From the NCBI RefSeq assembly GCF_026341855.1, contig NZ_JAPENW010000001.1, forward strand, positions 620,001 to 684,000: a stretch of 64,000 nt of DNA, given 5' to 3'. Below are positions 39,110 through 48,612 of the stretch, piece after piece (the first letter of the stretch is position 1; every line of letters starts with the position of its first letter). The position numbers and the translations under genes are program-made. The notes beneath the pieces are model-generated. The model did no database searches. It saw only the letters and a list, made by a program, of their open reading frames with translations, and was not told the DNA's origin. Source of the stretch: Streptomyces sp. NBC_00568 (GTDB taxonomy: Bacteria > Actinomycetota > Actinomycetes > Streptomycetales > Streptomycetaceae).

Positions 39110-40576
39110 CTACGGCTCCCCCGCAGCCCGCAGGTGCCGGACGGCGTACGAGCGCCACGGGCGCCAGCCGTCCGGGATGTCCGCTCCGGGCGGTGCCACG
39201 TCCGGGTCGCCGAGGGCGCGGGTGCGGATGACGGCGGCGACGCCCTCGTCCATGCCGGGCAGCGCGAGCAGCGCCTCCTGGGCCTCGTCGCGGTCGGCGC
39301 CCGGGTCGAGACGCAGGGCACCGTCGGCGAGGGCGGCGGTCAGGGCACCGAGGGGGCCGTCCGGCTCCGCCTGGGCGAGCACGGCGGCCTCGGGAAAGAG
39401 ATGCGTGAGCGTGTCGCAGGGGGCGTCCAGCGCCTTGCCGTACCGCTGCACGAGTCGCTCGGCCTCCGCCGCCCCCACCAGCGCGCGCACCGCCAGCTCG
39501 TCAGGATCGGCGGTGCCCGGCGACCTGAGGCCCGGCCGCGCCGCGACCAGGGGACCCAGCCGCGCGTCGGCTCCCAGCCGCTCGTCGACGGCGTACGGAT
39601 CCGCGTCGAGGTCGAACAGCCGCCGCAGCCGCTGTACGGCGGTGGTGAGGTCCCGGAGATCGGTGAGGTGGAGCCGGGCGTCGAGCCAGCCACCGGGGTG
39701 CGCGGCACCGGTCGGGGCCGACACTCCCCCGGCGGGGTCCGGTGCTCCTTCGGCACGGCTGGTCCCGCCGGAACCGGGGCGGCCCGCGCCCGTGCCCGCC
39801 CGTTCGTCGACGGCCACGATCCCCGTGCCGTACGGCAGCCTCAGGGTGCGCCGGTACGTACGGCGGCCACGGCGGCCGCCGACGGCCTCGACCCCCGGGA
39901 CGGCCTCGGCTGCCAGCAGGTCGAAGACGGCGGTGGTCTGGTAGGGCCCCCGGTGGGCGAGCCGGAGCGGGACACCCGCGGCGGGGGTGGCCGCGCGCCG
40001 GGCGGCGGGGCCGGTGCGCGGCGCGGCGGCGCGCACCTCGCTCGGCGTCGACGCGTAGACCGCGCGGATCGTGTCGTTGAACTGGCGCACGCTGGCGAAC
40101 CCCGCCGCGAACGCGATCTGCGTGATGGGGAGTTCGGTGGTCTGGAGCAGTATCCGCGCGGTGTGCGCCCGCTGGGCCCTGGCCAGCGCGACCGGACCCG
40201 CGCCGACCTCCGCCGTGAGCTGCCGCTGGACCTGGCGGGCGCTGTACCCGAGACGCGTGGCGAGCCCTCCGACGCCCTCACGGTCCACGACGCCGTCACC
40301 GATCAGGCGCATGGCCCGGCCGACGACGTCGGCCCGTACGTTCCAGGCGGCGGAGCCCGGCACGGAGTCCGGGCGGCATCTGCGGCAGGCCCGGAAGCCC
40401 GAACCCTGCGCGGCGGCGGCCGTCGCGTAGAACCGCACGTTCTGCCGCTTGGGTGTCACCGCGGGGCAGCTGGGCCTGCAGTAGATCCCCGTCGTCCGCA
40501 CGGCGAAGAAGAACTCCCCGTCGAACCGGGCGTCCCGGCTCCGCACGGCCTCGTACCTGGTGTCCTCGTCGATCAC
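39110..40576 (-). CDS. Ada-type regulator / AlkA DNA glycosylase fusion
   Basis: A 488-residue DNA alkylation repair protein. The N-terminal Ada zinc domain (residues 1-75) has the methyl-accepting Cys in IYCRPSCPA and the partner cysteines in ACRRCRPD. An AraC-type HTH follows (YSARQVQRQLTAEVGAGP, ASVRQFNDTIRAVYASTP), then an AlkA N-terminal domain (LRLAHRGPYQTTAVFDLL). The C-terminal HhH-GPD glycosylase domain has LLALPGMDEGVAAVIRTRAL and GWRPWRSYAVRHL. This is the normal actinobacterial AdaA-AlkA arrangement: sensing methylphosphotriesters and excising methylated bases. The GTG at 40576 starts the Ada domain; a ribosome site (GGAAGG) lies unusually close. Confidence 0.9.
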   Translation of the reverse strand: MIDEDTRYEAVRSRDARFDGEFFFAVRTTGIYCRPSCPAVTPKRQNVRFYATAAAAQGSGFRACRRCRPDSVPGSAAWNVRADVVGRAMRLIGDGVVDREGVGGLATRLGYSARQVQRQLTAEVGAGPVALARAQRAHTARILLQTTELPITQIAFAAGFASVRQFNDTIRAVYASTPSEVRAAAPRTGPAARRAATPAAGVPLRLAHRGPYQTTAVFDLLAAEAVPGVEAVGGRRGRRTYRRTLRLPYGTGIVAVDERAGTGAGRPGSGGTSRAEGAPDPAGGVSAPTGAAHPGGWLDARLHLTDLRDLTTAVQRLRRLFDLDADPYAVDERLGADARLGPLVAARPGLRSPGTADPDELAVRALVGAAEAERLVQRYGKALDAPCDTLTHLFPEAAVLAQAEPDGPLGALTAALADGALRLDPGADRDEAQEALLALPGMDEGVAAVIRTRALGDPDVAPPGADIPDGWRPWRSYAVRHLRAAGEP

Positions 40577-40732
40577 CCTTCCAGTGTGGCCCGCCCCGCA
40601 CCACGCGGCTGGCGGAAATCGGACACGGCACTGCGATCCGGGCAAGGCCTCGCCCACACCCCGCGCCGACCGGCCGACGGGAGGCACGATCCGGCGCGGG
40701 ACCGCACAGGGCAAGGCAACCGGACGAGGACA

Positions 40733-40774
40733 GAGGCGGAGGCGGAGGCAGAGGCAGAGGCGGAGGCGGAGGCG
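40733..40774. repeat. Hexanucleotide tract (GAGGCG/A)x7
   Basis: Seven uninterrupted copies of GAGGCG or GAGGCA lie in the non-coding DNA upstream of the ada-alkA gene, about 60 bp before the 20-bp array. Confidence 0.95.
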
Positions 40775-40841
40775 GACGTCCAGGCGGCGCGGACGAGCGC
40801 AGGGGGCGGATCGGGTCCGGACGGCCGCGAGGGCAGGTCCA

Positions 40842-41017
40842 GCCACGGCTGGGACTGGCCCGGCCACCGCTAGGGCTGGTCCGGCCACGCTGGGACTGGC
40901 CCGGCCACCGCTAGGGCTGGCCCGGCCACGCTGGGACTGGCCCGGCCACCGCTAGGGCTGGTCCAGCCACGCTGGGACCGGTCCAGCCACCGCTGGGACT
41001 GGTCCAGCCACGCTGGG
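40842..41017. repeat. 20/21-bp tandem repeat, about 8.6 copies
   Basis: Copies alternate between a 20-bp form (GCCACGCTGGGACTGGCCCG) and a 21-bp form (GCCACCGCTAGGGCTGG plus 4 bases). This gives a 41-bp higher-order period in the first six copies. Later copies have TCCA for CCCG. The array lies between the 5' end of ada-alkA and the 3' end of rsgA. The whole 532-bp gap (40577-41108) contains no convincing gene. Confidence 0.95.
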
Positions 41018-42356: not shown

Positions 42357-42771
42357 CGGTCACACCTCCTGGAACTCACTCAGCCGGCAGACGGCGACCA
42401 CCGGTCGCCTGGGAACGAGACAACCCTAGCCGCAGGTCTCGGTGGGAGGCCACCTCTTTTTCCCTCGAGGAGCCCCGGAGTGGAGCGGCTGTGCCCGCCA
42501 CCCCCATGAACCGCCGGATGCCGGCCCCTTGGACAGGCGAGCGGGCGAGCGGGCGAGCGGGCAGGCATGCAGGCAGGCAGGCAGGCGGCGAACGCGACGC
42601 GCTCGTGGAGTCGTTCGACGCCGACGGTCGCACGCGCCACGCGGCAGGGCGCCACCGGCTGGACCAGCGAGCACCCGGTGCATCGCCAGGGCCGCTGTTC
42701 GGCTCTCCGCCGGCCGGCCGCGGCGTACCGTCGCCGACCGGCAGAGGCGTCGCCGCCCATGGATCCCCCGG
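42357..42771. other. 415-bp gap with GC-rich simple repeats
   Basis: This lies between the small peptide gene and the end of the helicase gene. It contains (GCGAGCGG)n-like and (CAGG)n tracts at 42537-42589 and nothing that looks like a real gene. The short frames here translate to repetitive Ala/Pro/Arg/Cys sequence. The promoter of the small-gene/rsgA pair should lie near 42365-42450. Confidence 0.55.
42537..42589. repeat. Simple repeats (GCGAGCGG)3 and (GCAG)n
   Basis: Three GCGAGCGG units run into a GCAGGCAT-GCAGGCAGGCAGGCAG tract, downstream of the helicase gene and outside coding sequence. Confidence 0.9.
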
Positions 42772-45700
42772 TCAGTCCTCGATGAACCGAACCGTCACGC
42801 TCCGCCGCCGCCCGGGACCGCTGACGTAGCCGACCACGTCCCCGACTTCCCTCCACATGAGGGCCTCGCCCATCGCGGAGTACGGGCTCAGCCTCTCGCC
42901 CTCCCCGCCCGGCAGCAGGGCCACCTCGTAGACCGTGGTGCCGTCCTCGTCCTCCACCCCCACCAGGCAGCCCGGAGTGATCCGCGCCCCGCCCCTGAAC
43001 GAGGGATCGGGCACCACCTGATCGAGCACGGCCCGGAGGAATTCCTGGCGGTCCCTCAAGGACTCGCGCCGCTTCTCGTGCTCGGCCAGCTGCCCCTTGC
43101 GTGAGGACGAGTCGACGGCGACGATCTCCGGGACGGGCAGGTTCAACGCGTCCTGCACCCGGTCCAGTTCGCGCCTGACCCGCCGGTAGGCGTTCGTCGA
43201 GAGCCTGTCGACCTTGATCCGGAGCGTATCGGGCGCGGCCGGGCGGTAGGGAGCCGCCGCCTGGTCGCGGACCGAGGCCCGCACCTGCTTGCGGGCCCCG
43301 TTCCTCCTCCCGCCGGCCGCCTGGGGCGTCGTCCTGAGGGTCGGCTCGGGACCCGCCTCGGCAGTGACCCGAGGGCTCGCCTTCGGCCTCAGCAGCTCCG
43401 TCGTACAGCCATGCTTCAGCGCCGCGTCGGAGTACGAGGCATGGTGACGTACCAGCGCCCACTGCCGGCCGTCGACCAGGACCGGAACGTCGACCCTGCC
43501 GATCGCCGACCGGATCATGGCATGGACCTCGTCATGGCCGAGCCTGAGCACAGGCTTCCCGTCACGCACGATCTCGACCGCGTCCGCGCCAGGGTGACCG
43601 GGGGCACCCGCCTGCGGAAGAAAACGGGCTGAGCCCGCGGCACGTTCCCCCTGCCGGAAGGGCACGGTGCGGCGCAGGCTGAACGCGTGCTGGGCGGCGT
43701 TCACCTCGTCCCGGTGCAGCCAGGCGGCGGAGACGAAGCGCGAGGGGTCGGCCGTCCAAACCTGCCGGGTGTCGTCCGGGCCCGGGCCGCGGGCCGTGAC
43801 CGCCGGGGCGGTACGGGGTTCGGGGGCGGCGCCAGCGGGCTCGGGATCCTCCGCGTCCACCGGTGCCCCGGAAACCTCCGGCGCTGCCGGGATCTCCTCG
43901 GACGGCGCGGCGGCCCGGGGGGACGGAATCACCCGGGCCACAGGCTGCGGAACCCGCGTCGCCTCCGGCTCCGGAACCGGCCTCGGCCGCCGACTCGTGC
44001 CGGCATCACTAGGTGACGCGCCGACCTCACGAGATGACGTGCCGGCCTCACGGGGCGACGTGACGGCCTCACGGGGCGACGTGCCGGCCTCACGAGGTGA
44101 CGTGCCGCCCGCGCTCCTCGCCGCGGTCTCGATACCGAGCCGTTCCAGCTCGGTCCACAGTGGCTCGAGGGCCTTCTCCGGATCCAGGAAGAACCGGCTT
44201 CCCCGGATGCGGACGAAGGTCCAGCCCACTCGCTCCAGTTCCCGCTGACGCGCCGCGTCGGCGTCCGCGTTCTCCTCCGTGTGGAAGGCGTCGCCGTCGC
44301 ACTCCACCGCGAGCCTCTTCGTGCCGCCCTCGACCACCAGGTCGATGCGGTAGCGGCCTGCGGGGTACTGCGGGCGCACGCGGTAGCCGCGTTCGCGCAA
44401 CGCCAGGTAGACGCGCTGCTCGAAGAGACTGTCGAAGGCGTCATGGGGCTCGTCCGGCCTGACCTCGCCGGCCACGGCCCCGTCCTGCTCCTCCGCGGGC
44501 CTGGAGAACCAGTCGAGGTAGCCACGGCGCAGATCGGTCTCGCCGAGCTCGGTCAGCGTCACGCTGTGGAAGAGCCAGACCTGGTCGCGGGCGCGGGAGG
44601 CGGCGACGTTGATGTGCTGCCGGGCGAGTGTGCTGCTGTAAGGGCCGATGCGCCGCGCGCCGTCGGCACCGGCGAGTGAGGCCACCAGGCTGATGAAGAC
44701 GATGTCGCGCTCGTCGCCCTGGAACTCCTCCGCGTTGCCGACGCGCAGCCGGCGCCGCTGCCGCTCGTCCAGCGGGATCCGGTCGGCGAGCAGATCCTCG
44801 ATGAGGAACTTCTGCCCGGCACCGAGCAGGGTGATCACGCCCATGGTGCGGCCCCGGTAGGCGGGGTCGTCGATGCACCGGGCGATCTCGTCCACGACGC
44901 GCTCCGCCTCGGGCCGGTTGAACTGTTTCTGCCCGGTTCCTTCCACATGGCCGTCCACGATGTGCACGGAACGCAGCGGCCGCAGCCGGCCGGCGCCGTA
45001 CTGACGCAGCGGCTGGAGCCTGCCCCCGTAGCAGAGCGCGTTGGAGAAGCCGATGATCTCCGGCATGCACCGGAAGTGCTCCTGGAGCATCAATCTGCCG
45101 CGCCCGCCGGCGAGGCCGGACGCGATGTCGAAGAGGCTGGCGGTGGGCGTGAACAGATTGCGGCGGGACGCGGGCAGTCCGCCGAGCATGCGCCGCTGCA
45201 GGGAGAAGAGTTCGTCGTGGTCGATGCCCACGTTGGCCGGGCTGACCTGCTGGTCGTCGCCCACCACGATGATCTTCGAACCGAGCCAGGCGAGCAGCAG
45301 CGCTTCGGGACCCGACTGGCTCGCTTCGTCGATGATGACGACGTCGAAGCGGCCCGGCCGGTCCATCGGGACGGTCTCGGTCACCTGGTGGAGCGGCATG
45401 ATCCAGGCGGGCACCGCTTCCTGGCTCTCGTGCAGGCTCTCGCGGGCCTGGCGCCGGTAGACCGGGGCGTACTTGCCGGTGCCCTTGCCGAGCTTCCGCA
45501 CGCTCTGCTGATACGACGTGAGGGCTACGGCCTGGTCGTCGGTCAGTCTGGACAGGCAGCTGTACCAGGCCTTGTCGGCCGCGAGGCGTTCGAGGCTGAT
45601 GCGGATGTCGGCGTCCGCCTCCGCGAGCCGGCGCATCTGGACGGACTCGGCTTCGGGGTCGGTGAGCTCGTGCATCCGCCGGTGCCAGGCCGACCAGGCC

Positions 45701-48612
45701 CATGCCCGTTCGTAGTCGGGCAGCCGGTGGTCCCACACGGGGTCTTCCGCGGTCGACTCCAGTGCGTCCGCGAGGTCGGGCACCTGCGCGGCGACCACCG
45801 TGTACGCCGCGTCGCACTCCCGCTTCAGACGCAGCGCCTCACGCAGGTCGTCCAGTTCTCCGACCGCCGCGGCGTAGGCGGCGGTGTCCTGTGTCTCGGC
45901 GGCGACGCGTGCCCGGTCCACGACCGGTGACGCGCCCCGCCGGTGCGCCGCGGCCCTGAGCGCCTCGAGCGTCGCGGCGATCCGTGCGCGGTGCTCCCCG
46001 GCGGCGCGGCGGGTGGCGCGGGCCCGCAGCAGACGGCGTACGGCCTGCGCGGTGTCGTCCGTGTGCCAGGACCGTCCGGCCAGGCCGGGCGCCGCCGCCG
46101 CGGCTGCCAGGACGTCCGCCCGCCGGTCTGCGAGACGGGCGAGCGCGGTGAGCGTGGCGGCATCCTGGCGGAGCCTCGCGGTACGCCGGGCGGTCGCCGT
46201 CCAGGCGGCGGTGCCGCCGTCGCCCCATTCGCTCTCGATCTCGTGGAGGCGCCTCTCCAGTCGGACGCGGTCCAGGACGACCACGGCGGCGGACTCGGTG
46301 GCGACCGCCTGTCCGTCGACCCGCACGGTCTCCGGGAAGTCCCCGACGGCCTTGCGCAGCTTCGACTTGAGGCCCAGCGGCCCGCGCAGCTTCTCCCCGG
46401 ACGCCAATCCGTCGCGCAACGTTCCGGCGAGGCCGAGCGCCGTGGGGACGTCGTACGCCTCCAGGCCGCTGACGAGCACGCCGCCGAGGGACGCGGCCAG
46501 CGTCTCGGCCGCGTCGACGGCCGCCTCGGTCCGCTCCAGGCGGCTCCGCAGGTCGAAGTCCCGTCCGGCGAGTACTTCCTCGCGCAGGTGCGCGGCCCAG
46601 GGCGCGGCATCGGCCGTCGTGGTGGCGAGGTCCCCCGCGAGGCCGTCGAGGGCGGTGGCGAGTCGGTCCTGAGCGGCGGCGGAGAGTCCGGAGACGGCGT
46701 CGTCGAGCCGGGACACCGTACCGTCCGCGCGCAGCGCCGCCAGGTCCGTGTCGGCGGCCCGGATCGCCGTCACCGCATCGGCGAATCCGTGCGCGGAGAG
46801 CAGCTCCGCCGGGTCGGGCAGGGCGGCACTGGATCCGGCGGCCAGGGCCCGGTCGCGGGTGGTGAAGGCGAGGGAGGCGCGCCGCAGCTCCGCGCATGCC
46901 GCCGCGTCGGCGGTCGGGACGTCGGCCGGTACGGAACCGATCCAGTTCAGCCGGTCGCGTTCCGAATGCAGGCGGGCGGCGATTCCCGCCAGGGTGCCCT
47001 GGTAGTCGCCGATGTCGGCCGGGTGCCGATAGGTCTCCCGTTCGCGCAGCGCACGGAGGGCCTTCAGCGCTCCCGCCTGGGTGGAACGGGCTTTCGCCAG
47101 GCGCTCCTCGTGCTCCTTGATGTGCCGGAGATACGTCCGCGCGGAGAAGTCGCCCTGCCGGTCGAGGATCGCCTTGACCGACTGCTCCAGTTCCTGCTGG
47201 GCGGCGCTGTCGTCGGTGCGGCTGACGCACAGTTCGCGGATGCTCCCGGGCAGTTTGTCCTTGAGGACCTTCAGCGCTCGTGCCGTATGGCTGGTGATCA
47301 GTACGCGCCGCCCGTGGGCCAGCAGATCGGTGACCAGATTGGCGATCGTATGGGTCTTTCCGGTGCCGGGCGGTCCCTGGACGACGACCAGGTCGCGGTC
47401 CGTCAGCCGCTCGGCGATGGTGCGCTGTTCGTCGTTGGACGGCAGCGCGAAATACAGCTCCTGGCGGTGGCCGCGCGTCCCGCCGCTCCCGCGATCGTCC
47501 CCTTCGAGGTCGCCGAGGCGGGTGTCACCGCCCGCGCCCGCGATGGCACGCAGCAGGGCCGTCGGCTCCGCGCCCTGTTCCACGCGTGCCGCGACGCCGC
47601 GCAGGGCGTCGAGCATGCTGCGCTTGGTCCGCTCCCGCAGAATCAGCATGGGGGCGAAGCCGACGACGGGGACCGCGGGATCGCCCGCCGAGCGGGGCCG
47701 TTCGGCACCGCGCTCGTACCGGCCCGCCTCGTGGGCGGCGATCACCCAGGCATTGAGCGCCCGGTGCAGAGGCTCCACCGCGAAGGGGTCGGTCGTGTCT
47801 CCGGCCTCTTCGAGATCCTGCTGGACAAGGGCGCGGGTGTGCGCGCGAGCCTTCTGGTCGGCGTCGAGCATGGACTCCTCGAGCACCGGTGCGCCGCTCT
47901 CGGGGTCCGGTCCGACGGTGATGGCTCCCGTGACCGCGTCGATGGCGATGACAGCCCGGCAGGTGACGAGATGACGACGCACCCGCTCACCCGCGGCGGA
48001 CCAGGCCAGATGACCGAAGCCGACGACGAGTTCGTAGCTCTCGCCGAGGTCGGTGGTGTCCTCATGGATGCGGTAGAGCTGATCGTAGGCGCGCATCACC
48101 GGCTTCACCGTGCGGTCCTGCTCGGCCCAGCGCATCCATGCGGCGGCCCAGGTGCGGTGCTGAGCGAGGACCTCGTCGCGGAGCCGGAAGTCGTCGAGGG
48201 CGACGGTGACGGTGCCGCGCTCGGCGCTGCCGCCCGCCGACACGGTGGACGACGGCAGTTCGGCGACGACCGTGGGCGTGGGTGCGTCCTGCCGTCCGGA
48301 GTCCCGTATCTGCGTGTTGTCCAGCCAGTGTGCGAGGAGGTCCGGCGGGCCGGGCGGATCGTGACGGACCGGGCGGTCGGCCCGGAGCCAGAGCGGGCTC
48401 TCGCCGGGCACGCTGTCCGTCAGAAACGACGCGAAGGTATCGGGCAGTTCCGAGAACCAGATCCGGTGACGCGAGTCGTCATGGTTGCGCACCGGCTTGG
48501 TGCGGCTCTCGCCGACCTCCGCGAGATACCGGAAGATCTGGCGGACGGCATCCTCGGGCGCGGGGGTCCCGGACGGGACGGCGGAGGAGGAGGGAGCGGC
48601 GGGGACGGACAC
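42772..48612 (-). CDS. SF1 helicase / Vsr-like nuclease / GreA-like C-terminus fusion protein
   Basis: A very large protein of 1946 residues. The parts are: an N-terminal 400-residue uncharacterised region; an SF1 (COG1112, UPF1-like) helicase with Walker A GPPGTGKTHTIANLV near residue 410 and Walker B VVIIDEASQSGPEALLLAWL near 1090, followed by VVGDDQQVSP; a long coiled-coil-rich insert (about 460-1000) between them; then QEHFRCMPEIIGFSN and NVAASRARDQVWLF. Next is a PD-(D/E)xK domain near 1405-1490 (YRIDLVVEG, LAVECDGDAFH, VRIRGSRFF). A Pro-rich linker with TSPREAG heptads leads to a C-terminal segment like the GreA/GreB C-domain (LSPYSAMGEALMWREVGDVV). GTG start. A nucleic-acid repair or anti-phage role is plausible but unproven. 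Confidence 0.85.
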   Translation of the reverse strand: MSVPAAPSSSAVPSGTPAPEDAVRQIFRYLAEVGESRTKPVRNHDDSRHRIWFSELPDTFASFLTDSVPGESPLWLRADRPVRHDPPGPPDLLAHWLDNTQIRDSGRQDAPTPTVVAELPSSTVSAGGSAERGTVTVALDDFRLRDEVLAQHRTWAAAWMRWAEQDRTVKPVMRAYDQLYRIHEDTTDLGESYELVVGFGHLAWSAAGERVRRHLVTCRAVIAIDAVTGAITVGPDPESGAPVLEESMLDADQKARAHTRALVQQDLEEAGDTTDPFAVEPLHRALNAWVIAAHEAGRYERGAERPRSAGDPAVPVVGFAPMLILRERTKRSMLDALRGVAARVEQGAEPTALLRAIAGAGGDTRLGDLEGDDRGSGGTRGHRQELYFALPSNDEQRTIAERLTDRDLVVVQGPPGTGKTHTIANLVTDLLAHGRRVLITSHTARALKVLKDKLPGSIRELCVSRTDDSAAQQELEQSVKAILDRQGDFSARTYLRHIKEHEERLAKARSTQAGALKALRALRERETYRHPADIGDYQGTLAGIAARLHSERDRLNWIGSVPADVPTADAAACAELRRASLAFTTRDRALAAGSSAALPDPAELLSAHGFADAVTAIRAADTDLAALRADGTVSRLDDAVSGLSAAAQDRLATALDGLAGDLATTTADAAPWAAHLREEVLAGRDFDLRSRLERTEAAVDAAETLAASLGGVLVSGLEAYDVPTALGLAGTLRDGLASGEKLRGPLGLKSKLRKAVGDFPETVRVDGQAVATESAAVVVLDRVRLERRLHEIESEWGDGGTAAWTATARRTARLRQDAATLTALARLADRRADVLAAAAAAPGLAGRSWHTDDTAQAVRRLLRARATRRAAGEHRARIAATLEALRAAAHRRGASPVVDRARVAAETQDTAAYAAAVGELDDLREALRLKRECDAAYTVVAAQVPDLADALESTAEDPVWDHRLPDYERAWAWSAWHRRMHELTDPEAESVQMRRLAEADADIRISLERLAADKAWYSCLSRLTDDQAVALTSYQQSVRKLGKGTGKYAPVYRRQARESLHESQEAVPAWIMPLHQVTETVPMDRPGRFDVVIIDEASQSGPEALLLAWLGSKIIVVGDDQQVSPANVGIDHDELFSLQRRMLGGLPASRRNLFTPTASLFDIASGLAGGRGRLMLQEHFRCMPEIIGFSNALCYGGRLQPLRQYGAGRLRPLRSVHIVDGHVEGTGQKQFNRPEAERVVDEIARCIDDPAYRGRTMGVITLLGAGQKFLIEDLLADRIPLDERQRRRLRVGNAEEFQGDERDIVFISLVASLAGADGARRIGPYSSTLARQHINVAASRARDQVWLFHSVTLTELGETDLRRGYLDWFSRPAEEQDGAVAGEVRPDEPHDAFDSLFEQRVYLALRERGYRVRPQYPAGRYRIDLVVEGGTKRLAVECDGDAFHTEENADADAARQRELERVGWTFVRIRGSRFFLDPEKALEPLWTELERLGIETAARSAGGTSPREAGTSPREAVTSPREAGTSSREVGASPSDAGTSRRPRPVPEPEATRVPQPVARVIPSPRAAAPSEEIPAAPEVSGAPVDAEDPEPAGAAPEPRTAPAVTARGPGPDDTRQVWTADPSRFVSAAWLHRDEVNAAQHAFSLRRTVPFRQGERAAGSARFLPQAGAPGHPGADAVEIVRDGKPVLRLGHDEVHAMIRSAIGRVDVPVLVDGRQWALVRHHASYSDAALKHGCTTELLRPKASPRVTAEAGPEPTLRTTPQAAGGRRNGARKQVRASVRDQAAAPYRPAAPDTLRIKVDRLSTNAYRRVRRELDRVQDALNLPVPEIVAVDSSSRKGQLAEHEKRRESLRDRQEFLRAVLDQVVPDPSFRGGARITPGCLVGVEDEDGTTVYEVALLPGGEGERLSPYSAMGEALMWREVGDVVGYVSGPGRRRSVTVRFIED

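What the first reader, a model, noticed from the sequence alone, without database searches (positions are those of the whole stretch)
42772..48612. 1946-residue SF1 helicase fused to a Vsr-like nuclease and a GreA-like C-domain
Seen: Walker A/B motifs of a UPF1-like helicase, a PD-(D/E)xK segment with IDLVVE and AVECDGD, and a C-terminal segment with LSPYSAMGEAL...VGDVV resembling the RNA-polymerase-binding GreA/GreB domain. Known: COG1112-type helicases with fused nucleases occur in anti-phage systems such as Mokosh. Inference: a single-gene defence or R-loop/transcription-conflict system that couples polymerase contact to nuclease action. I know no described system with this exact order.
Basis: partly seen in the sequence, partly recalled or inferred. 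Interest (0 to 1): 0.75.

Follow-up and report, generated by a model that had tools for sequence, protein, structure and literature searches.

The report
Helicase-nuclease with an RNA-polymerase-docking tail
A large Streptomyces enzyme that looks like a single-gene defence against foreign DNA ends in a copy of a protein that normally plugs into RNA polymerase, suggesting that it may find its targets by catching the polymerase while it transcribes invading DNA.

Summary
Confirmed and extended. Window 42772-48612 (minus strand) encodes one 1946-aa protein: family N-terminus, UPF1-like SF1 helicase, Vsr-type nuclease (Pfam REase_MTES_1575, E 2.6e-31), linker, a 120-aa domain without a PDB match, and a C-terminal GreA/Gfh1-like module. 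Profile search and AlphaFold recover both halves of a GreA/GreB/Gfh1 factor (Foldseek E 7.8e-8; profile E 1.9e-6), not just its C-domain. GreB's tip acids are not conserved, so it looks like a docking arm rather than a cleavage factor. Both tail domains evolve under purifying selection, the linkers far less so. The core belongs to a family found on plasmids and viral contigs; some relatives lie near BREX, Wadjet, AbiE or methyltransferase genes. Tails vary, and GreA-type tails occur in three separate places of the family tree, one a clean swap between two syntenic contigs. Best reading: a stand-alone anti-foreign-DNA helicase-nuclease aimed at, or triggered by, RNA polymerase. Defence and polymerase binding are inferred. 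GreA/B-C domains were already predicted in other conflict systems (TPR-PIN), and HelD is an SF1-type ATPase with a Gre-like arm; this combination I did not find described. Prevalence in Streptomyces could not be measured (tool failure).

The parts
42772..48612 (-). whole gene, 1946 aa, GTG start, stop at 42772-42774; 262 nt from the upstream and 547 nt from the downstream predicted gene, so probably its own transcription unit
47443..48546 (-). N-terminal domain shared across the family (residues 23-390)
   Evidence: alignment A4 of 17 members; no PDB sequence match below E 0.16
44563..47442 (-). SF1 UPF1-like helicase core in two halves (391-540 and 1061-1350) around a faster-evolving insert (541-1060)
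   Evidence: Pfam AAA_11/AAA_12; dN/dS
47353..47376 (-). Walker A GPPGTGKT (residues 413-420)
45325..45345 (-). Walker B DVVIIDE (residues 1090-1096)
44146..44424 (-). Vsr-type PD-(D/E)xK nuclease, REase_MTES_1575 (residues 1397-1489)
   Evidence: Pfam 2.6e-31; E1398, D1424, E1437 invariant in 18 of 18 aligned; dN/dS 0.02-0.11
43753..44127 (-). low-complexity linker (residues 1496-1620)
   Evidence: dN/dS 0.50-1.37 in 9 of 10 pairs (one not computed)
43387..43746 (-). middle tail domain, alpha+beta, no recognised fold (residues 1623-1742)
   Evidence: AF2 pLDDT 90.7, pTM 0.85; no convincing PDB match; dN/dS 0.13-0.35
42775..43212 (-). GreA/Gfh1-like module (residues 1801-1946)
43018..43197 (-). 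coiled-coil hairpin of the GreA-like module (1806-1865), Asp 1834 in its turn
   Evidence: AF2 helices; A-V-D invariant 14 of 14
42775..42996 (-). GreA_GreB C-domain, FKBP-like (1873-1946)
   Evidence: Pfam; VIA-align

Best explanation
It is a stand-alone, single-gene anti-foreign-DNA enzyme. The SF1 helicase and the Vsr-type nuclease form the conserved motor and cutter of a widespread defence-associated family; the C-terminal tail is an exchangeable targeting arm. In this Streptomyces lineage the arm is a GreA/Gfh1-like factor that would dock on the rim and in the secondary channel of RNA polymerase, without GreA's transcript-cleaving acids. The enzyme would thus ride on, or be triggered by, polymerase that is transcribing, stalled or hijacked on invading DNA, and then unwind and cut the template or R-loop. 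Shown by computation: domain make-up, both GreA halves, conserved nuclease and ATPase motifs, purifying selection on the tail, tail exchange, defence-gene neighbours of some relatives. Inferred: polymerase binding, foreign-DNA targeting, the order of events.
For: Domains. Full GreA/Gfh1 fold: Foldseek ranks 1-13 are all GreA/GreB/Gfh1-family chains, best E 7.8e-8; VIA-align Z 9.8-11.5 for its top ten rows, all of that family; profile search Gfh1 E 1.9e-6 and GreB E 9.5e-4 across both halves. Purifying selection on the tail domains, much weaker on the linkers. GreA tails in three separate places of the 35-row family tree, three changes forced by well-supported branches, one clade rejected, AU p 8.9e-6. 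Tail swap between L041 (GreA_GreB 44.1 bits, E 2.1e-11) and L042: cores 81% identical, three neighbouring genes 76, 45 and 80% identical, tails unrelated. Relatives near brxL (L035), JetD (L031, 462.8 bits), AbiE and PDC-S14 (L034), a type II methyltransferase (L041). Nearest models are anti-phage: ProA 226, PDC-S37 206.9, Hhe 142.3 bits.
Against: No activity shown. The window gene and the 7 copies beside lepA lie among ordinary genes, and those 7 keep one site, as a stable chromosomal gene would. Four of the eight plasmid relatives whose surroundings I fetched show no defence gene by annotation. The curated cut-offs for ProA and Hhe are not met. One relative, L020, has Ala in place of a catalytic Glu. 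The positions of GreB D121/P123 (recalled as polymerase contacts) are Tyr/Ala in the window copy; Asp stands there in 9 and Pro in 6 of the 13 rows, window included, so docking may be weak here. GreA-type C-domains are FKBP-like and could bind another partner.
Confidence: 0.5

Rival explanations
1. A host genome-maintenance factor: a HelD- or Mfd-like motor that removes stalled or backtracked RNA polymerase and uses its nuclease to clear R-loops at transcription-replication conflicts.
For: HelD is an SF1-type ATPase with a Gre-like arm in the secondary channel (PMC7749165 abstract and section 9; that it is SF1-type is recalled); HelD appears, weakly, in the fold lists (Foldseek E 0.09; Z 6.7 at rmsd 6.3-9.0). 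Seven of 15 copies keep the lepA site. Window neighbours are ordinary genes including an Ada-AlkA repair protein.
Against: Some core relatives without the GreA tail sit near defence genes, and many are on plasmids; four genomic contexts in 15 sequences; a strongly conserved nuclease is hard to square with routine polymerase recycling.
Confidence: 0.22
2. An abortive-shutdown enzyme: once activated, the Gfh1-like arm blocks the cell's own RNA polymerase while the nuclease degrades DNA unselectively.
For: Nearest solved relative is Gfh1, the anti-cleavage factor; GreB's tip acids are absent.
Against: Other family members lack the arm altogether yet keep the nuclease.
Confidence: 0.15
3. The GreA-like module is a generic FKBP-type protein-binding tail with no polymerase contact.
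For: SlyD, trigger factor and FKBP domains follow the GreA family in the fold list at Z of about 6-8 for the C-domain alone; the 115-aa tail of L041 has its GreA C-domain from residue 40, which leaves no room for a full coiled coil.
Against: In Streptomyces the coiled-coil half is kept, matches Gfh1 and GreB in one continuous alignment, and has dN/dS of 0.05-0.43 in 9 of 10 pairs.
Confidence: 0.13

Closest known systems
PDC-S37 (PADLOC candidate) and anti-phage ProA (NCBIfam NF058533)
   Same: Matched stretch spans helicase and nuclease; best matches in their libraries (206.9 and 226 bits)
   Different: Far below ProA's curated cut-off of 1500; PDC-S37's best stretch covers 937-1357 of 1550; the best stretches end at residues 1509 and 1522, before the tail domains
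Hhe (NF042953)
   Same: Best stretch 1068-1499, helicase half and nuclease (142.3 bits)
   Different: Cut-off 2000 not met; Pfam finds no DUF4011 here
Mokosh (MkoA/MkoC)
   Same: UPF1-like helicase (108-128 bits)
   Different: No phospholipase-D domain among matches up to E 1 (that Mokosh type II has one is recalled); Vsr-type nuclease instead
MTES_1575 type proteins (PMC3710099, passages read)
   Same: SF1 helicase plus this same Vsr-type nuclease
   Different: Those carry transglutaminase, HEPN and winged-helix domains; GreA is not mentioned in that paper under the terms searched
TPR-GreA/B-C-PIN conflict systems (PMC8195603, abstract and passages read)
   Same: GreA/B-C domain predicted to aim a nuclease at polymerase hijacked by a virus; mostly stand-alone genes
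   Different: No TPR and no PIN found here; helicase and Vsr-type nuclease; full GreA/Gfh1 module with coiled coil in the Streptomyces clade
HelD (PMC7749165, abstract and section 9 read)
   Same: ATPase with a Gre-like coiled coil for the secondary channel
   Different: The matching part is at HelD's N-terminal end (chain residues 22-171), here the C-terminal end; HelD has no nuclease (recalled) and is a recycling factor

Membership tests
UPF1-like SF1 helicases | AAA_11/AAA_12 halves with Walker A and B | tested here: met
   (60.3 and 55.1 bits, cut-offs 27); motifs
REase_MTES_1575 (Vsr-type) | full-length profile match and conserved catalytic acids | tested here: met
   108 bits against cut-off 38.2, profile 1-96 of 96; E1398, D1424, E1437 in 18 of 18 aligned
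GreA/GreB/Gfh1 factors (as a module) | coiled-coil N-domain plus FKBP-like C-domain | tested here: met
   AF2 mean pLDDT 75.4, pTM 0.43 over residues 1615-1946, linker included
GreA/GreB cleavage factors | acidic pair at the hairpin tip (D41, E44; recalled) | tested here: not met
   these GreB acids align with Arg and Gln of the profile; a single invariant Asp 1834 lies nearby
GreA/GreB/Gfh1 factors | binding to RNA polymerase | not testable with these tools
   needs pull-down or structure
ProA (NF058533) | curated score 1500 | tested here: not met
   226 bits
Hhe (NF042953) | curated score 2000 | tested here: not met
   142.3 bits
PDC-S37 | best PADLOC model, adequate profile coverage | tested here: inconclusive
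   206.9 bits, two stretches, best covers 421 of 1550 positions; PADLOC's own thresholds were not available
Mokosh | MkoA+MkoB, or MkoC with phospholipase-D nuclease (recalled) | tested here: not met
   no such domain at E up to 1; the ten neighbours scanned are unrelated
TPR-GreA/B-C-PIN conflict systems | TPR and PIN domains around GreA/B-C | tested here: not met
   neither at E up to 1

The most novel reading that the evidence does not exclude
A family of transcription-coupled restriction enzymes: a helicase-nuclease that has acquired, most simply three separate times, a GreA-type arm so that it samples DNA through the RNA polymerase that reads it, and cuts templates whose transcription looks foreign (phage-modified, stalled or over-driven polymerase), with other tails (Lsr2-like, winged-helix-like) giving sister enzymes other ways to recognise foreign DNA.
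Probability: 0.3. Interest if true: 0.85.

Novelty: new variant of a known kind. Interest (0 to 1): 0.58.

Why it matters
How single-gene defence helicase-nucleases tell self from foreign DNA is mostly unknown (my general knowledge). A family with one constant core and exchangeable tails, one of them a complete polymerase secondary-channel factor, makes a concrete and testable proposal: recognition through the transcription machinery. The L041/L042 pair offers a natural tail-swap experiment, and the 120-aa middle domain is a confidently predicted small fold with no match found.

Tried and rejected
Chance or frame artefact: rejected; codon pattern, conservation and dN/dS support the minus-strand frame; the 897-aa plus-strand ORF is taken as a high-GC shadow.

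Mokosh label: rejected as nearest relative.

'GreA C-domain only': rejected for Streptomyces; the coiled-coil half is present. Pfam itself names only the C-domain, here and in L041 and L026; L026's tail was tested by Pfam alone.

Known fold for the middle domain: none found (profile against PDB best E 0.14; Foldseek best E 0.63; VIA-align best Z 5.0 over 44 residues). This is not evidence of a new fold.

GreA-like tail elsewhere: no match in plasmids at E up to 1; one weak match in the phage collection, E 0.04, 26.9% identity over 43% of the query (not followed up); 22 pattern matches in viral contigs, none a relative. Flavobacterium protein L026: no pattern match in viral contigs. PHROGs: nothing for the window tail or the L041 tail.

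Papers: PDC-S37 0 papers; ProA+anti-phage+Hhe+helicase 0; Hhe+HEPN+Vsr+helicase+defense 0; GreA+anti-phage+helicase+two more terms 1, a reverse-transcriptase paper seen only in the listing; GreB+D121+P123 0, so those residues stay recalled. PMC12839542, PMC9122126, PMC7159879 and PMC10250203 were searched for chosen terms; the passages shown named no such fusion. Several searches listed only part of their hits (20 of 23, 20 of 116, 10 of 17).

Prevalence and empty sites in Streptomyces, and the window's own genome: not obtained. The genome search gave machine errors and was then out of its cap (107); the fetch from genomes likewise failed (55, 109, 114).

Rows dropped: the tree used 35 rows; L004, L006, L008, L009, L012, L040 were left out as near copies, and L020, L021, L027, L029, L030, L045, L047-L051 because my motif search recovered no core from them. 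L012's tail is not in one frame in the draft record and was left out of all tail alignments; it keeps the GreA label on the strength of tblastn. L004 was left out of the first two tail alignments and is in the third.

Full report
WHAT IS THERE. The finding's ORF is real, complete and on the minus strand: GTG start at 48612, stop at 42772, 1946 residues. From N to C terminus: a family N-domain (23-390), the two halves of a UPF1-like SF1 helicase (391-540 and 1061-1350) around a faster-evolving insert, a Vsr-type nuclease (Pfam REase_MTES_1575, residues 1397-1489, E 2.6e-31), a low-complexity linker, a 120-residue middle domain (1623-1742), a second linker, and a GreA/Gfh1-like module (1801-1946). 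The nuclease acids E1398, D1424 and E1437 are invariant in 18 of the 18 family members that I chose to align, so an active nuclease is expected here; one relative outside that alignment, L020, has Ala in place of E1437. The name 'Vsr' for this nuclease type comes from PMC3710099 (passages read).

THE GREA PART. Pfam sees only the C-domain, and in the window protein only weakly (15.3 bits, below the 26.9 cut-off; 20.7 bits alone). Of three Streptomyces orthologues scanned alone, two pass the cut-off (L007 33.8, L002 28.5) and L010 does not (12.3, with a higher but also sub-threshold acetyltransferase match). Two independent methods show that the whole module is GreA-like. A profile of 14 Streptomyces modules finds Thermus Gfh1 (E 1.9e-6) and E. 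coli GreB (E 9.5e-4) in alignments that run through both the coiled coil and the C-domain. AlphaFold2 on residues 1615-1946 (13 sequences; mean pLDDT 75.4, pTM 0.43) gives a model whose Foldseek ranks 1-13 in the PDB are all GreA/GreB/Gfh1-family chains, best E 7.8e-8. VIA-align's top ten rows are of that family at Z 9.8 to 11.5; six align 139-146 residues at rmsd 4.6-5.1, one 116 residues at 6.2, and three only the 71-72 residues of the C-domain, so the relative placing of the two halves is uncertain. In the GreB alignment the two tip acids of the cleavage factor (recalled as D41 and E44) face Arg and Gln; one Asp (1834, in an invariant A-V-D) lies in the turn of the hairpin in 14 of 14 modules. 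I therefore expect docking without cleavage stimulation, as in Gfh1; that is inference.

SELECTION. In ten ortholog pairs (not independent of each other) dN/dS is 0.02-0.11 in the nuclease, 0.04-0.20 in the helicase halves, 0.13-0.35 in the middle domain and 0.09-0.32 in the GreA C-domain; in the coiled coil it is 0.05-0.43 in nine pairs and 1.43 in the tenth, L003/L008, which differ at about 6% of its residues. The two linkers give 0.50-1.37 (nine pairs, one not computed) and 0.30-1.04. The tail domains are functional parts, not debris.

MIDDLE DOMAIN. Predicted alone (residues 1615-1746) it gives a confident model (pLDDT 90.7, pTM 0.85, 12 sequences), with no convincing PDB relative. It is missing from L010, the first branch within the Streptomyces clade, which keeps a GreA-like module: the GreA module seems to be the older addition.

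RELATIVES AND SURROUNDINGS. A genome scan by short peptide patterns gave 30 loci: 14 close Streptomyces orthologues (L001-L014) and 16 more distant ones; this is a lower bound and no measure of prevalence. In 15 sequences including the window there are four contexts: between LepA and a radical-SAM gene (7), a second region, in five of six cases with a VapBC-type toxin-antitoxin pair next to the gene (6), and one each for L010 and the window (RsgA GTPase downstream, cellulose-binding protein upstream). Gene names there rest on Pfam for one member of each cluster. The contexts largely follow the tree, so this is occasional relocation, not rampant mobility. The core matches 39 plasmid records at E up to 1e-40 and nine viral-contig loci over its whole length at 39-50% identity (L039-L047, two of them with identical cores, of 13 returned). 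Of the eight plasmid members whose surroundings I fetched, three lie near clear defence genes: L035 directly behind brxL and ahead of an OLD/AriA-like ATPase, L031 near JetD, L034 next to a PDC-S14 candidate and near AbiE; L036 follows a gene annotated as a restriction endonuclease; the other four (L032, L033, L037, L038) show none by annotation, in tables that are partly incomplete. L041 and L042 have a divergent neighbour that is a methyltransferase by PADLOC in L041 and 76% identical in L042, and a small HTH gene with a 4-nt overlap.

TAIL EXCHANGE. Outside the Streptomyces clade the residues after the nuclease vary: 65 residues or fewer (for example L017, L018, L022, L023, L028, L031-L035, L039), a DUF3320 domain (L036, 38.7 bits; L046, 18.7 bits, below cut-off), an Lsr2 DNA-binding-like end (L019, 21.5 bits, below the 26.9 cut-off), a shared winged-helix-like tail that Pfam does not name (L015, L024, L042; my reading of the sequences), tails that I could not assign (L016, L037, L038, L043, L044), and GreA_GreB C-domains in L041 (44.1 bits) and in Flavobacterium L026 (25.3 bits, just below cut-off). 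On a 35-row core tree the GreA label needs three changes, all forced by well-supported branches, and a single clade is rejected (AU p 8.9e-6). Three gains are the simplest account; transfer of tails between members, or a gain with many losses, is not excluded, and L026 is a long branch whose place is unsure. L041 lies inside a clade whose other members, L042 and L024, have the winged-helix-like tail; L041 and L042 are 81% identical over the first 1480 columns, three neighbouring genes are 76%, 45% and 80% identical, and the tails are unrelated. That is a tail swap in one place.

HOW IT MOST LIKELY WORKS. The constant helicase-nuclease does the work, the tail decides where. A GreA-type arm would bring it to RNA polymerase; foreign DNA being transcribed would be unwound and cut. 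Kaur and colleagues (author recalled; PMC8195603, abstract and passages read) predicted a similar use for GreA/B-C domains in TPR-PIN proteins, namely action on polymerase hijacked to transcribe viral DNA; HelD (PMC7749165, abstract and section 9) shows that an ATPase of this general kind can carry a Gre-like arm into the secondary channel. Neither is the present architecture. None of the papers listed by my ten searches concerns a helicase-Vsr-GreA fusion by title or abstract start; the lists were partly cut, no single search combined Vsr with GreA, and most subscription papers are outside that library.

LIMITS. No activity is shown by anything here. The window copy has Tyr and Ala at the positions of GreB D121 and P123 (contact role recalled), where Asp stands in 9 and Pro in 6 of the 13 rows, which may weaken docking. 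Frequency in Streptomyces, empty sites and paralogues in the same genome could not be examined because the genome tools did not complete.

VERDICT. A real and well-supported architecture, a new variant within a known kind of defence-associated helicase-nuclease, with a testable and unusual targeting proposal.

Noticed in passing
window 43387-43746 (minus): 120-residue middle domain with a confident predicted model (pLDDT 90.7), present in the Streptomyces orthologues aligned except L010; no PDB relative found.
   Followed up: partly
L031 10377-11219 and L032 10530-11345: Streptomyces plasmid relatives carry a second gene directly behind the helicase-nuclease (4-nt overlap in L031, 2-nt gap in L032); the L031 product resembles DUF4145 weakly (19.4 bits, below cut-off), so these may be two-gene systems.
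   Followed up: partly
L035 5626-10356: A family member sits directly behind brxL in a BREX cluster on an Acinetobacter plasmid, followed by an OLD/AriA-like ATPase gene.
   Followed up: no
L041 and L042 4435-4794: A 119-aa gene (mad1-like HTH, 30.6 bits in L041) overlaps the start of the helicase-nuclease by 4 nt, next to a divergent methyltransferase gene: possibly a restriction-modification-like unit.
   Followed up: partly
L019 13270-13710: Herbidospora relative ends in an Lsr2 DNA-binding-like domain (21.5 bits, below cut-off), the fold of a xenogeneic silencer: another possible way to aim at foreign DNA.
   Followed up: no
window 42640-42800 (minus): Strong GC-rich hairpin around and just behind the end of the gene (z -2.9 for the 161-nt stretch), plausible terminator without a U run.
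   Followed up: no
window 39110-40888 (minus): Ada metal-binding, AraC-type HTH and AlkA N-terminal domains in one protein near the finding.
   Followed up: no
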